Source: Mediterranea sp. (in: CFB group bacteria)
Lineage (GTDB): Bacteria; Bacteroidota; Bacteroidia; Bacteroidales; Bacteroidaceae
Direction of reading: 5' to 3'
DNA length: 49,026 nucleotides
NCBI GenBank assembly: GCA_031262385.1
Contig: JAISHU010000104.1
Span: forward strand, 1-49,026
How positions within the stretch are numbered: position 1 is the stretch's first letter; the number at the start of each line of letters is the position of its first letter. Both the position numbers and the translations under genes were made by a program. This document shows, in pieces, positions 9,958 through 48,154 of the stretch. The notes below the pieces were generated by a model. That model ran no database searches, was not told where the DNA came from, and worked only from the letters and a program-made list of their open reading frames with translations.

Positions 9958-10019
9958 TTCTTTAATAGTTGTCGGATAATATCCTGTTTACGCATCAAAA
10001 TGTCACAATATTGCGCTTT

Positions 10020-10500
10020 CTGCTAACTCGTACTTTGCAAAAAAAGAGTGCTCAGCCGGAAGACAACGCACTCCGAAGCCGTAGCCAATTCGTTGCAAAC
10101 GCGAAAACAACGAATCAACTCGGCGGAAACAACGAATCATCCGCACGAAAACAACGAACTGTCGGCACGAAAACAACGAATCAACTGCCGGCTTAGCAAA
10201 TTATCCCGGCAAGTTAAGCTGTATTTCCCGGCAAATTATTGTGTTATCCCGGCAAGTTATCACGCTAACTTGCCGGGATAATTTCATAAAGTTCTTTTTG
10301 AGGCTGTTTTTTCGCGCTGAAGGCGCTTTTTGTTTCTTGACATAATTTCTTCATATCTTTCTGTAAGTATGCGGATTAAATAGCGTATTTTACATAGTTT
10401 AACGCGCTATACTCGCACGAAAGTCACCAAGCCGTCCCTTAGTCCGAAATAAGCCCGTTTTTCGAGGGTTCGTTTGACGTTTTGACACTTTGTCAATGGA
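10020..10500 (-). repeat. Locus A: intergenic mosaic repeat element (22-bp periodic) in the same family as locus B, inverted
   Basis: aacaacgaa at 10106, 10128, 10150, 10172 (exact 22-bp spacing). cccggcaa at 10205, 10227, 10248 plus an inverted copy at ~10269. 10455-10487 and 10394-10409 are inverse matches to locus B. Confidence 0.9.
10244..10281. repeat. Perfect 16-bp inverted repeat (hairpin) within locus A
   Basis: TTATCCCGGCAAGTTA – TCACGC – TAACTTGCCGGGATAA. Confidence 0.95.
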
Positions 10501-10636
10501 TGCGTCTCCCAACTTCTACCCGTACACGACCTGCCAAAAAAGGGAAACCGCCCTCTCCCTTTGACAGGAAAAGACAGTCTCCCGGATATAGAAACGAAGA
10601 TTAGATATAACTAACGACCCTTTCTATCTTATATAT

Positions 10637-11602
10637 TTAGCTAACAGGGATCCCTTCGGGAGTTATCCGCAGATGCCTTTCGGCTTCTCCGCGTTCCAGT
10701 TCGATGACATAGAAATTGCCGGTAGGAGTTTCGAAATAGTCTGCGTCGTCAACGTAATAACCGCTGAAATTGGCAGATATATAAGCTGCTACGGCAGAAG
10801 GTAATTCGGAGGAACGTACTTCCCACGAGGTGGAAATCCATTCGAACGTCGTAGAATTTAGGCGCACCTCTTTGCCGCGGTTCACATTCAAGTCGATAAT
10901 ATCGACTTCGATAGAACTATATTCGCGTTCAATCTCAATGATACGTGCATTGGGAAAGAGTTTCGCAATGGCATCTTGCACCGAAGTATAAGTGCCGGTA
11001 GGAGTTGTCGGTAGCAAAGCTCCGGTGTCGCCGCCTGCAGTTGCACCGTTGCCGGTACTACCGGTGTCGCCGCCCGTTCCGGTATTACCCGAATTGCTGT
11101 TGGTGCTGTTGCCGCGTTCGTCAACGCCCATTACAAAGATACCGTCTTCGGTGTAATACAAATCCCAGTCCACTTCGCCCACAAGGGTTTCTACGTCTAT
11201 AATGTAAACCGATTTGGAGTTGAGGCGCTCCACAAAGTCCACTTCGCCGTCGCGACGTTCGTAAACAGTCCGGTCGTTATATTCGCTACTTTCAAAAATG
11301 TTTTTAACAGCTTGCGGGATGGCAGCGTACGGCATCTCGGTAATCGTCATATACCACGTACCGTCGGGAGCATACCATACTTCGGTTTCATAGCCTTGGG
11401 CGTTTCTAAAAGTCGCTCTGTAATAGTTGGATGCCGAAACATTGCGCGTCTCCCAATTCAAATTCGAAGCACCCGCATAGTTTTGCTCAAAAGCTTTAGT
11501 AACAGGGTCGGGCACATTGTACAGGGAAGGGTTGTCGTTCTTTGTGCAACTATGCAGAGCAATCATTCCCATTGTTATCAAAATAAAATACATTTTCTTC
11601 AT
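10637..11602 (-). CDS. PepSY-like (DUF2874) lipoprotein with two PepSY-like regions joined by a Gly/Thr/Asn-rich linker
   Basis: MKKMYFILITMGMIALHSCTKND lipobox; NLNWETRN…YETEVWYAPDGTW; linker NSNSGNTGTGGDTGSTGNGATAGGDTG. Confidence 0.78.
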   Translation of the reverse strand: MKKMYFILITMGMIALHSCTKNDNPSLYNVPDPVTKAFEQNYAGASNLNWETRNVSASNYYRATFRNAQGYETEVWYAPDGTWYMTITEMPYAAIPQAVKNIFESSEYNDRTVYERRDGEVDFVERLNSKSVYIIDVETLVGEVDWDLYYTEDGIFVMGVDERGNSTNSNSGNTGTGGDTGSTGNGATAGGDTGALLPTTPTGTYTSVQDAIAKLFPNARIIEIEREYSSIEVDIIDLNVNRGKEVRLNSTTFEWISTSWEVRSSELPSAVAAYISANFSGYYVDDADYFETPTGNFYVIELERGEAERHLRITPEGIPVS

Positions 11603-26041: not shown

Positions 26042-26058
26042 TCCCTCTCTTGTCATTT

Positions 26059-26460
26059 TGTCAAAACGTCAAACGAACCCCTCGAAAAACGGCTGTTTTA
26101 CGGACTGAAGTACGGCTCGTGACTTCCGATGCCCGTGTAGCGCGTTAAACTATCTAAAAAATAGGGCTTAATGTGCACTCATCCAGAACGATAAGCTCCA
26201 AAAATCTTTGCGAAGAAAAAGCGTGCTCAGCGCGAAAAAAAGTCCCCGAAAAGAACATTCCGAAATTATCTTGCCGAGTTAGCGCGATAACTTGCCGAGA
26301 TAAATCAACAATTTGCCGAGACAGACAGCTTAACGTGCCGGGAAAAATAGTTTTCCCGGCAGCCGGTTCGTCATCTCCGTGTAGTTGATTCGTTGTTTTC
26401 GCGCAAACAGTTTGTTATTTCCGTGCAAACAGTTTGTTGTTTCCGCGCAAACAATGCATT
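26059..26460 (+). repeat. Locus B: intergenic mosaic repeat element (21-22-bp periodic), inverted homologue of locus A
   Basis: NTTGCCGAG-type cores at 26270, 26291, 26312, 26334; second-module units at 26364, 26386, 26408, 26430, 26452 (exact 22-bp spacing); TGTCAAAACGTCAAACGAACCCCTCGAAAAACGG at 26059-26092 and TAGCGCGTTAAACTAT at 26138-26153 match locus A reverse complement. Confidence 0.9.
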
Positions 26461-26604
26461 AAAAACGGGGCAAGAGCAGATTGCCTCCGTTTAAAGAGCG
26501 ATTTTCCACAAAGTGACGGTTAGGGAAAAAGGCAAAAAGACGACAGATTGATAGGATGAGGCGAGAAATAGTTTCTTTTTAAAAAAACACATCCCTCCCC
26601 GCCT

Positions 26605-32890: not shown

Positions 32891-32920
32891 AAGAGTAAGT
32901 ACACTCGCTTAACGAAACTC

Positions 32921-33102
32921 TTAACTCGGCAAGTTAACACGCTATATCGGTAGTTTATAGCGATTATTCCGGCAAGTTATTTTATTATCTCAGTGATTCA
33001 CGTTTGTCAAACAAGTGATTCACGTTCGCCAAACAGGTGATTCACAAATGCCAAACAGGTGATTCACAAACGTCAAACAAGGAGTTGCCGCAATGAAACA
33101 CT
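32921..33102 (+). repeat. Locus C: 22-bp periodic intergenic repeat between convergent genes
   Basis: gtgattca at 32993, 33015, 33037, 33059 (exact 22 bp) with degenerate unit at 33081; ggcaagtta-type cores at 32928, 32949, 32971. Confidence 0.92.
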
Positions 33103-33106
33103 TCTT

Positions 33107-33856
33107 CTACAAAATGCCCAGCCGCAATGCCACCGCAATACCCTCGTGTATGTTGGAAACGTGCAGCTTTTGATGTAACAATTTACGTTTGCACCCTTTT
33201 ATCGTACTCATCGAAACCTTTAGCATACATGCGATGTCGGCGTTGAGATAACCTTGCGCCGTCAGTCGCAGAATCTTTTTTTCGCGAATCGTAAGCCGAT
33301 GATAACGAATCGTCTCCCACTTACCCATGCCGGTACGTACATAGCGCGTCAACCGTTCCATATCCCATATAGATGCCGTATGTGTTACCGGAAACAAGGA
33401 GTGCGAAACCGTACACACGCCCACATGTGTCTCGGAGGCATGATTTTCCCACAACGGGTAGCAGCAGATGCTTATCCAATGGCTCTCTCCGCACCTGTTT
33501 TCGATAGGAAGCGTCAGTTCGGCGTGGCAGTTTTGCTGCCCATAGAGATTCAGATCACTGTACTTGATTAAGGTATCTTTGTAAGCGAGTTAGGCGGAGA
33601 GGAGATCTTTCCTGTGCAACACTCTTTTGAAGAACATAAAACCCTCGCGCATCATTTGTTCGGGCAGATGCTTACCCAACGCCAAGTTGTGCGGCATTAC
33701 ATGCACTACACTCTCCTTCGAGATATCTACCAGCAACAGCGCATGGTTTTGAGTATGGAGGGGAGCATCGGACAACACTCGGTAAGCTTTTAATAAATTG
33801 GTGTCTATCATGGATGGTAGGTGTATAATTAAGATTGTGGCAAACATACAAAACAA
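33107..33856 (-). pseudogene. LuxR-type HTH regulator interrupted by a single in-frame TAA
   Basis: ORFs 33856-33590 and 33454-33107 are in the same frame; reading through TAA (33590-33592) gives …HRKDLLSA*LAYKDTLIKYSDLNLYGQQNCHAELTLPIENRCGESHWISICCYPLWENHASETHVG…LTIREKKILRLTAQGYLNADIACMLKVSMSTIKGCKRKLLHQKL. Confidence 0.82.
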
Positions 33857-45170: not shown

Positions 45171-47543
45171 ATGATAATTGAGATGAAAAGAAACACAATT
45201 CTATTGTTTATTATGGCAGCGGTCGTTTTATTGACCGGCTGCTTGGGGGGCAATGTCTATGACCCGACTAAAAAGCCGGAAATTCCTCCCACAGAAAACC
45301 CGTTAGGAGAAGGCTTCACCGCCCCGCCCAGCTTCGATTGGACCATGTACAAGAGTATATCGCTTACCGCCGAAGTGAAAGACGAATTTAACGGGCAATA
45401 CAACTACTTGATAGAAGTTTTTGCGCAAAATCCACTGCTTACTTCTACTGCTACTCCCATTGCCACAGGCGTTGCCGGAAAAGGACAAAATTATACGGCA
45501 ACTTTGATTCTGCCTATACCGGCTACCGAACTGTATATACGTAAAACCGACCCCAAACAGCGCAAAGAGACCTATGCGTTTACTGTTCCCGCAGCATCGG
45601 GCAGTATCACATGCAAACTCTATCCCGGTGGCGCCGCTACCCGCGCAGTGGGCAGCAGCACGGCGGCTGTAGATGCGGCAAAAGCAGAAGGATTCAGCGA
45701 GCCGGAGGTTGACCCCAAAACGTGGTTTACACTGCCGAGTAACTGGACAGAACTACCTAAACAGGATGGCAGGAATGAATATCCGGGGGGTAGCAACTTT
45801 TTGATTGAAGGTACCTTTAATCGAGAAATTAATGCGAGTACGAATAGCGGTCGTGTCAAGGTCTATGTAAAAGGTACATGGGCTATCCCAACGAATGAAA
45901 TCCAGAGCAATTTGGACATTTATGTACTCAACGGAGGTAAAATTGAAGTTACTAAGGATGGATTCCAATTTGGGAAAGCATGTTCTATCTCCGTACAAGA
46001 AGGGGGTACAATAGATATTAAGGTAGCCAACAATGTAACCTTTCAAGATGCACCCTTTTACAACTTCGGCACGTTGAAATCGGGGACTAATGCCACCATA
46101 ACGTTTGGTGATAATATGGTGCTGAACTATGGCGATATATTAGTAAAGAAAAAAATGAAATTTGTTTCAGCAACAGTATCCAATCACGGTACTATCTCCG
46201 TCGATGAATGGCTGGACACCAATACTCCCAAAGATAAGTATTGGGTAAACTGGAACAGTGCCACTATCAAAGCGTACAAATGGACTGGTGGCGGTACTAT
46301 CTATAACGATGGATTTATAGAAGTAACCTTGCGCGAGAGTGCCACGGATGAGTTTATCTATAATGCTTGCACAATCATTGCCAAGGAGTCGTTTGACTTT
46401 ATTAAAATGACCTTAGATAAAGGTTCGTTGACCTCCGGACAAGACAGTAACGGGAAATGGCTTCCTGTTCCTTTAGTTACTTCACCGTATTCGACTGAAG
46501 TTACCATGAAGAACGGTTCGTTAATCAAAGCGACCAACTTGTTTTTCACAAATGGTGGTAGTACCGTAACAGGTGTTTCAGGTGGTGATATCTCCATGCT
46601 AAAAGCAGGAACAATCGAACTTGGAGAATACAACTGGGATACTCGGATAAGCGGAAATCTTGTATTGGAAAGAGATACAGTAATCAGTCCGAACGACAGT
46701 CAATGGAGTTCGTGCTTCCATGCCGAAGGCATCCCCACCACCGGTTACGACGAATCGCAATACACCGTAGAAACCTGCGGCGGTATACTCAACGAAGGCA
46801 ACGAAGGAGAGACTCCCACCAATCCCACTTATCCCCTTGTGACCGACGACGATACGGGTTATACCTTTGCTTTCGAAGACAACTGGCCTGTCTACGGCGA
46901 TTTGGACTTTAACGATGCGGTAGTCTCTATCGACAACATCATTACCGAACAACGTGCCGACGGCTCGCTGCAAGCAGCTACCATTAAAGGTAGTGTACGG
47001 GCTGTGGGTGCTTCGAAAACGCTGACTCTCGCTCTGCGTATGCAGACGATTCCCAACAGCTATCAGCTAATCAGTTCCGACTTGCATCGCTTTATGGGCA
47101 ACGCAACAGGCGACAACGAATTTATCAATACGAAAAAGGGAGGCTATACAAAGACACCCGCAACCTTTGAGGTGAAATATACCTTTAGTGGTACATCGGT
47201 GATGCCCGTCGACTTCAATATTAATATGGTGGATTTGTATATCTCGACCCCCTCGTGGAGCAACAAAACCATGTCCATAGAGATACACCTTCCCGATATT
47301 GCCCCCACCGACAAAGCCGACCCGAAACTATTCGACACGGGCGACGACGCTTCTACGTTGGAAGGTTACTACCTCAGCAAAGAGCGAATAGCATGGGCTA
47401 TCATGATTCCCGCTCCGTTTGCATGGCCGCTGGAATATAAAAATATTAAAGACGTATATCCCGACTTCAAGAGTTGGATAACCTCCGGCGGTACAAATAA
47501 TCCCGACTGGTATCAGAATCACAACGGCGATGTGTTTGAATAA
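45171..47543 (+). CDS. LruC domain-containing (DUF4842) lipoprotein
   Basis: Lipobox VVLLTGCLGG; C-terminal YPLVTDDDTGYTFAFEDNWPVYGDLDFNDAVVSIDNII…LTLALRMQTIP; central beta-solenoid-like region. Confidence 0.87.
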   Translation: MIIEMKRNTILLFIMAAVVLLTGCLGGNVYDPTKKPEIPPTENPLGEGFTAPPSFDWTMYKSISLTAEVKDEFNGQYNYLIEVFAQNPLLTSTATPIATGVAGKGQNYTATLILPIPATELYIRKTDPKQRKETYAFTVPAASGSITCKLYPGGAATRAVGSSTAAVDAAKAEGFSEPEVDPKTWFTLPSNWTELPKQDGRNEYPGGSNFLIEGTFNREINASTNSGRVKVYVKGTWAIPTNEIQSNLDIYVLNGGKIEVTKDGFQFGKACSISVQEGGTIDIKVANNVTFQDAPFYNFGTLKSGTNATITFGDNMVLNYGDILVKKKMKFVSATVSNHGTISVDEWLDTNTPKDKYWVNWNSATIKAYKWTGGGTIYNDGFIEVTLRESATDEFIYNACTIIAKESFDFIKMTLDKGSLTSGQDSNGKWLPVPLVTSPYSTEVTMKNGSLIKATNLFFTNGGSTVTGVSGGDISMLKAGTIELGEYNWDTRISGNLVLERDTVISPNDSQWSSCFHAEGIPTTGYDESQYTVETCGGILNEGNEGETPTNPTYPLVTDDDTGYTFAFEDNWPVYGDLDFNDAVVSIDNIITEQRADGSLQAATIKGSVRAVGASKTLTLALRMQTIPNSYQLISSDLHRFMGNATGDNEFINTKKGGYTKTPATFEVKYTFSGTSVMPVDFNINMVDLYISTPSWSNKTMSIEIHLPDIAPTDKADPKLFDTGDDASTLEGYYLSKERIAWAIMIPAPFAWPLEYKNIKDVYPDFKSWITSGGTNNPDWYQNHNGDVFE

Positions 47544-47574
47544 CCGCTAAGCATTTTCCCGCAAATCATCATTT

Positions 47575-47615
47575 AAAAAGCAACCCCGTCTCACTACGAG
47601 ACGGGGTTGCTTTTT
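47575..47615 (+). terminator. Strong terminator after LruC gene
   Basis: AAAAAGCAACCCCGTCTC – ACTAC – GAGACGGGGTTGCTTTTT, 18-bp perfect arms. Confidence 0.9.
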
Positions 47616-47826
47616 AAAACAATCTTCCTAATTTATTCGGAAGCTGTTTTGAATTTAGTGCTTGTTTCGTCCTGATTTTGGTTGACCGTAGTATCTCAAT
47701 CTTTTCCTCAAGCAAAGAGAAGGTGCACGCTAAAGGTGTGATGGACGCGTGATAAGCTGTTTTATAACTTTTCTTTCTTACATCCTTATCTTTACAGCTT
47801 ATTTTATTGTCTTTGCACCGCACATT

Positions 47827-47924
47827 CTTTACCGTCCGACCAACGTCGTACGAGCGTCCGACGATGGTTGTACGACCGTACGACGTTGGTCGGACGCTCG
47901 TACGACGTTGGTCGGACGGTAAAG
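47827..47924. repeat. Locus D: four tandem 22-bp units forming a perfect 36-bp-arm inverted repeat
   Basis: Units start at 47833, 47855, 47877, 47899; arms 47827-47862 and 47889-47924 (CTTTACCGTCCGACCAACGTCGTACGAGCGTCCGAC and its exact reverse complement). Confidence 0.95.
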
Positions 47925-48154
47925 GAAGTGCAGTATAAAAATAATATATTACTGATACATAATTATTTATCAGTAAATAACAACTACTAAACAATTCACT
48001 GCCTCCGGTAAGTTTCTTAGCATCTCCGCAGAAGACAGGCAGCTATCTGACAAGTAAAAGAGAAAGATAAGACCGAAAAGAGACTCGGGAGCATGAGTAA
48101 TAAAAATTATATCAATAAAATCAAAACGGTTTCTAATAATCTTCGAAAAAGATA

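What the first reader, a model, noticed from the sequence alone, without database searches (positions are those of the whole stretch)
10394..10500. Locus A has a long non-array tail shared, inverted, with locus B 16 kb away
CCGTTTTTCGAGGGTTCGTTTGACGTTTTGACA (10455-10487) is the reverse complement of 26059-26092 apart from one extra C. ATAGTTTAACGCGCTA (10394-10409) is the exact reverse complement of 26138-26153. Intervening sequence also aligns imperfectly (e.g. TTCAGCGCGAAAAAAC in A reverse complement vs CTCAGCGCGAAAAAAA in B). A and B are therefore divergent copies of one ~400-bp modular element, with no coding capacity apparent.
Basis: seen in the sequence. Interest (0 to 1): 0.72.

Follow-up and report, generated by a model that had tools for sequence, protein, structure and literature searches.

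The report
Dispersed intergenic 22-bp-array repeat element
The two matching stretches are copies of a roughly 500-bp non-coding DNA element that occurs about 95 times in this gut bacterium's genome, never close together, and whose relatives across the genus keep the same ends and the same 22-bp repeat length while the repeat's own sequence changes completely.

Summary
A (9994-10496) and B (26050-26552, inverted) align end to end at about 77% identity (score 197; shuffles at most 32). They belong to a family with at least 92 tail-bearing copies in the 2.6-Mb genome, almost all intergenic. Each copy has a leader, nine 22-bp units in two sub-arrays, an AT-rich stretch and a tail that is nearly invariant. 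Leader-to-tail length is constant; four short copies lack exactly one unit.

A multi-species model finds the tail in 56 of 158 genomes of the genus. In five relatives examined the arrays keep a 22-bp period although the unit sequence differs. Neighbouring genes are shared between species no more than chance predicts, so copies dispersed separately in each lineage. In the home genome copies repel each other: none of 18 spacings is below 7.2 kb, against about 6.8 expected. Copies are unlinked mosaics of shared two-state variants, which suggests exchange among copies.

No target-site duplication, long terminal inverted repeat, RNA covariation, Rfam match or REP-type transposase was found. Best reading: a non-autonomous dispersed DNA element, comparable to the BrickBuilt MITE of Porphyromonas but not shown to be a MITE. 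Its mobiliser is unknown.

The parts
9978..10496 (+). Element A, whole; left edge fuzzy (about 9978-9994)
   Evidence: Alignment with B starts at 9994; match to L056 starts at 9979; 80+ genomic copies compared
10022..10037 (+). Leader anchor GCTAACTCGTACTTTG; its distance to the tail is 434 bp in most copies
10082..10191 (+). Alpha sub-array: five 22-bp units (AAACAACGAATCAACTCGGCG type), the first one divergent in A
10192..10283 (+). Beta sub-array: four 22-bp units (TATCCCGGCAAGTTA type), the last one inverted
10394..10409 (+). Conserved motif ATAGTTTAACGCGCTA (about 2.6% variation across copies)
10410..10496 (+). Tail; 32-mer 10456-10487 exact in 61 of 80 pattern-matched copies; homologous tail in other species
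10497..10630 (+). Right-hand extension shared with only a few copies (94% with L097; part of it with L056)
26050..26552 (-). Element B, a divergent copy in the opposite orientation
   Evidence: 65% identical to its most distant sister
26059..26092 (-). Tail of B, with one extra C
26138..26153 (-). Motif ATAGTTTAACGCGCTA of B
26264..26460 (-). 22-bp arrays of B
   Evidence: E 8.5e-46
32907..32991 (+). Remnant C: beta-array fragment without leader or tail
   Evidence: E 4.7e-6
32992..33079 (+). Four 22-bp units of a different sequence (GTGATTCACGTTTGNCAAACA) abutting remnant C
   Evidence: family D3; (lag 22)

Best explanation
A and B are copies of a non-coding, non-autonomous dispersed DNA element. 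It has spread within each lineage of the genus into gaps between genes, by an unknown enzyme supplied elsewhere. It acts as DNA: proteins probably bind the conserved tail and the array, whose units repeat every 22 bp (about two helical turns) and so face one side of the helix. The copies then stay alike because they exchange short stretches of sequence, and close neighbours are prevented or lost. Shown by computation: family, architecture, 22-bp period, constant length, lineage-specific dispersal, spacing, shared unlinked variants. Inferred: mobility in trans, protein binding, gene conversion, and the cause of the spacing.
For: At least 92 tail-bearing copies in the home genome. Tail found in 56 of 158 genus genomes, from 1 to dozens of copies each, at the sensitivity of model R2. 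Of 236 proteins flanking home copies, about 14 copy pairs match the neighbourhoods of 60 relative copies, close to my rough chance estimate of about 17, so sites are mostly not inherited in common. Leader-to-tail length is constant in 64 of 68 copies, the other four lacking one unit; about 44 substitutions but 0.19 indels per copy. 22-bp period in five relatives with different units, z about 20-34. 74 of 125 variable sites have only two states (2.8 expected) and linkage disappears beyond about 30 bp. No spacing under 7.2 kb.
Against: No fixed target-site duplication of 5 bp or more. No long terminal inverted repeat; at most 10 bp (ATCAAAGTGT) in two copies plus one 18-bp flank match. No autonomous parent seen. 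No near-identical young copies: the closest pair is 94%. Constant length and an invariant tail could equally mean selection for a cellular function.
Confidence: 0.5

Rival explanations
1. The elements are cellular chromosome-organising sites: a nucleoid or segregation protein binds the phased 22-bp array and the tail at roughly 100-200 spaced places.
For: Repulsive spacing with a minimum of 7.2 kb, mean 14.6 kb, CV 0.32 in the home genome; relatives show 8-17 kb spacings where copies are dense, e.g. G178 C14 at 14.9, 17.1 and 14.9 kb. Constant length and 22-bp period. Nearly invariant tail.
Against: 102 of 158 genus genomes give no match at this model's sensitivity; copy number varies widely; positions not conserved; one home contig (C41) runs about 40 kb without a tail match; no binding protein identified.
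Confidence: 0.25
2. A classical MITE derived from an insertion sequence, with target immunity explaining the spacing.
For: Size, intergenic location, lack of coding, high copy number and minisatellite core resemble BrickBuilt (PMC4596501). Repulsion at several kb is what transposition immunity would give (own knowledge).
Against: No consistent target-site duplication and no clear terminal inverted repeats. The Mu-transpos_C search was uninformative because no control genome rang.
Confidence: 0.15
3. A family of non-coding RNA genes or transcription terminators.
For: A short terminator-like stem followed by T residues was called inside A at 10314-10326, though such calls are expected by chance.
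Against: No Rfam family. RNAalifold predicts no pair on 23 tails from ten genomes. No stem-like long-range covariation among 62 copies. Orientation to genes is mixed: +- 21, -- 18, -+ 17, ++ 11.
Confidence: 0.05
4. Old repeat junk with no present activity, alike only through common descent.
For: No recent identical copies.
Against: Tail variation of 0.6-1.3% against up to 20% elsewhere, almost no indels, spacing, and mostly two-state unlinked variants.
Confidence: 0.05

Closest known systems
BrickBuilt MITE of Porphyromonas gingivalis (PMC4596501)
   Same: Also from Bacteroidales; non-coding, intergenic, leader + tandem minisatellite (23 nt) + tail, multiple copies.
   Different: BrickBuilt has 19 copies in ATCC 33277, a repeat number that varies from 1 to about 23, IS5-like 12-bp terminal inverted repeats and partial target duplications. 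Here at least 92 copies, a fixed unit number, no such ends, a genus-wide tail with changing units, and repulsive spacing. No sequence comparison with BrickBuilt itself was run.
REPINs/BIMEs with RAYT transposases (PMC3116915, PMC2817692)
   Same: About 100 intergenic copies per genome; modular.
   Different: REPs are short hairpin units; this is a 500-bp array element without hairpin covariation, and no Y1 transposase was found in the home genome.
MITE464/PgRS of P. gingivalis
   Same: A MITE-like element containing tandem repeats (41 nt), as described in PMC4596501.
   Different: Different unit length, IS5-type ends, 10-20 copies.
Plasmid iteron arrays (own knowledge)
   Same: Direct repeats of about 17-22 bp spaced by two helical turns and bound by a protein.
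   Different: Dispersed in the chromosome and without a replication gene; no match in the plasmid collection.

Membership tests
MITE / BrickBuilt-like | Non-coding, 50-1000 bp, intergenic, multicopy | tested here: met
MITE / BrickBuilt-like | Leader + tandem array + tail | tested here: met
MITE / BrickBuilt-like | Terminal inverted repeats | tested here: not met
   Only a 10-bp match in two copies and one 18-bp flank match among 68; shuffled pairings give similar lengths
MITE / BrickBuilt-like | Target-site duplication | tested here: not met
   No enriched offset pair over shuffled pairing for k = 4-8 in 68 copies
MITE / BrickBuilt-like | Parent element with the same ends and a transposase | tested here: inconclusive
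   All anchored copies have the same short length; Mu-transpos_C search had no positive control; genome 84% complete
REPIN/RAYT | Short inverted REP hairpins | tested here: not met
   About 500 bp; no stem covariation
REPIN/RAYT | RAYT (Y1_Tnp) gene in the genome | tested here: not met
   None in the home genome nor in 9 other element-bearing genomes; present in 4 of 14; the home genome is 84% complete
Known structured RNA | Rfam match or covarying pairs | tested here: not met
Nucleoid/segregation site array | Bound by a dedicated protein in vivo | not testable with these tools
   Needs pull-down or ChIP
Intrinsically curved DNA element | Phased A-tracts giving strong predicted curvature | tested here: not met
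   Home arrays z +0.6; G025, G101 and G007 z about -3.5 to -4.1 (wedge parameters from memory)

The most novel reading that the evidence does not exclude
A genus-wide class of chromosomal sites in which a protein reads a phased 22-bp array whose unit sequence turns over in every lineage, as satellite DNA does at centromeres, while the period, the ends and a minimum spacing of several kb are kept to organise the chromosome.
Probability: 0.2. Interest if true: 0.88.

Novelty: new variant of a known kind. Interest (0 to 1): 0.62.

Why it matters
I found no description of this family in the papers searched. It combines conserved ends, a fixed 22-bp period under sequence turnover, population-like exchange among about 95 copies and mutual repulsion along the chromosome. 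Those features make two cases testable: transposition immunity seen in genome data, or a chromosome-organising array. The copies probably also break short-read assemblies: 16 copies sit within 700 bp of contig ends.

Tried and rejected
Convergent-gene specificity: three window loci lie between convergent genes, but genome-wide orientation is mixed. Fixed target duplications and long inverted ends were not found. RNA structure: none. REP/RAYT: no Y1 transposase in the home genome. Phage or plasmid carriage: exact tail patterns absent from viral contigs, no plasmid match. DNA curvature: predicted in some relatives, not in the home arrays. Independent mutation of copies as the sole source of variation: rejected by two-state sites, although site-specific constraint is not excluded. 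A paper describing this element was not found in eight library searches. The 31-bp own-species tail pattern found nothing in genome contigs, where the home genome may be left out.

Full report
Check of the observation. The two short matches are at the stated coordinates, and A aligns with the reverse complement of B, 9994-10496 against 26552-26050, with 371 identities in a gapped alignment scoring 197, against at most 32 in 200 shuffles. The repeat finder reports the same inverted blocks.

Copy number. A 501-base query found 40 scored long matches in the home genome. The tail 32-mer with up to 3 mismatches gave 80 places, 61 of them exact, B gave its own set, and a tail profile gave 92. An array profile added five strong arrays with no tail match, possibly cut off by contig ends, and about a dozen decayed remnants, including 32907-32991 in this window. 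The assembly has 171 contigs and is 84% complete; 16 copies sit within 700 bp of contig ends, so the count is a minimum.

Architecture. The alignment of 72 copies gives a fuzzy left edge, a leader, arrays, an AT-rich stretch, the motif ATAGTTTAACGCGCTA and a tail. In 22-bp rows the array is nine units in phase: five of AAACAACGAAT type and four of TATCCCGGCAAGTTA type, the last inverted. From leader anchor to tail end the length is 465-468 bp in 64 copies and 444-445 in four, one unit less. There are about 44 substitutions but 0.19 indels per copy. No frame is kept open consistently.

Relatives. The home-species element has no long match in 80 relatives, but a tail profile found G025 and G037, and a multi-species profile found 56 of 158 genus genomes, with 18-33 copies in five of them. 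A conserved core, CGAAATAARCGATTCTCAG, named G025 and G037 as Bacteroides sp. RGIG8771 and Mediterranea massiliensis SIG138, by matching contig lengths. In G025, G037, G101, G007 and G159 the stretch upstream of the tail has a 22-bp period (z 20-34), also at 44 and 66, although the units differ between species. The period is kept while the sequence is not.

Positions. Of 236 proteins next to home copies, about 14 copy pairs matched the neighbourhoods of 60 relative copies. A rough expectation from the fraction of each genome covered is about 17 (my estimate). A few pairs, such as L106 with L221, look orthologous. The copies have therefore mostly dispersed separately in each lineage.

Spacing. 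Within contigs, 22 consecutive spacings run from 7.2 to 25.6 kb, mean 14.6 kb, CV 0.32. Leaving out copies near contig ends, 18 spacings have a minimum of 7.2 kb; uniform placement within the same contigs expects 6.8 below 7 kb (p about 1.5e-4; p for the minimum 5e-5). The 7-kb threshold was chosen after seeing the data; the minimum-spacing test does not depend on it. In relatives only one of 25 spacings is below 8.4 kb, and that one involves a weak match. Transposition immunity, loss by recombination between neighbours, or a cellular function could each produce this.

Variation among copies. Median pairwise identity is 87% and the closest pair 94%, so there are no fresh duplicates. Of 125 sites with at least six variants, 74 have only two states, against 2.8 expected under independent mutation. 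Linkage falls to background beyond about 30 bp. Some linked clusters are reversals of short motifs such as CTCGGCAAG/CTTGCCGGG. Exchange among copies explains this best; strong site-specific constraint is an alternative. The tail varies by 0.6-1.3%, other parts by up to 20%.

What it is not. No Rfam match, no consensus pairs in the tail, no stem-like long-range covariation. No enriched target duplication, no long inverted ends, no Y1 transposase in the home genome. The Mu-transpos_C search cannot be used, since no control rang. No viral or plasmid match. The home arrays are not predicted to be curved, although those of three relatives are (parameters recalled from memory).

Comparison. The nearest described element is BrickBuilt of P. 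gingivalis, a leader-minisatellite-tail MITE with 23-nt repeats and IS5-type ends (PMC4596501). This family works like it in layout, but two defining MITE features, inverted ends and target duplications, were tested and not met, so I do not file it as a MITE.

Verdict. The better description is a lineage-amplified, non-coding, non-autonomous DNA element with a phased 22-bp array. Mobility in trans, protein binding and gene conversion are inferences. A chromosome-organising role is not excluded.

Noticed in passing
window 32907-33079: A beta-array remnant directly followed by four 22-bp units of unrelated sequence (GTGATTCACGTTTGNCAAACA); a similar array lies beside, but outside, the element in L070 (2866-3000).
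   Followed up: partly
window 47800-47951 and 47572-47618: A long imperfect inverted repeat (75-nt arms, 83%, 2-nt gap) and a perfect 21-nt inverted repeat with a 5-nt gap downstream of the 45171-47543 ORF.
   Followed up: no
flanks of several copies, e.g. L103, L070, L069, L078: A separate short repeat, GTGCACCGCCTCATTAGCACATTAGCATATTG, recurs in whole or part at either end of some copies, in both orientations.
   Followed up: partly
window 10497-10630 and L097: A right-hand extension is shared at 94% between A and one other copy, ending 7 bp before the stop of the PepSY-like gene 10637-11602.
   Followed up: partly
window 33107-33856: Two short minus-strand ORFs in adjoining stretches that may be one broken gene; identity not tested.
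   Followed up: no
G025, G101, G007 element arrays: Strong predicted curvature from phased A/T tracts, absent from the home-genome arrays.
   Followed up: partly
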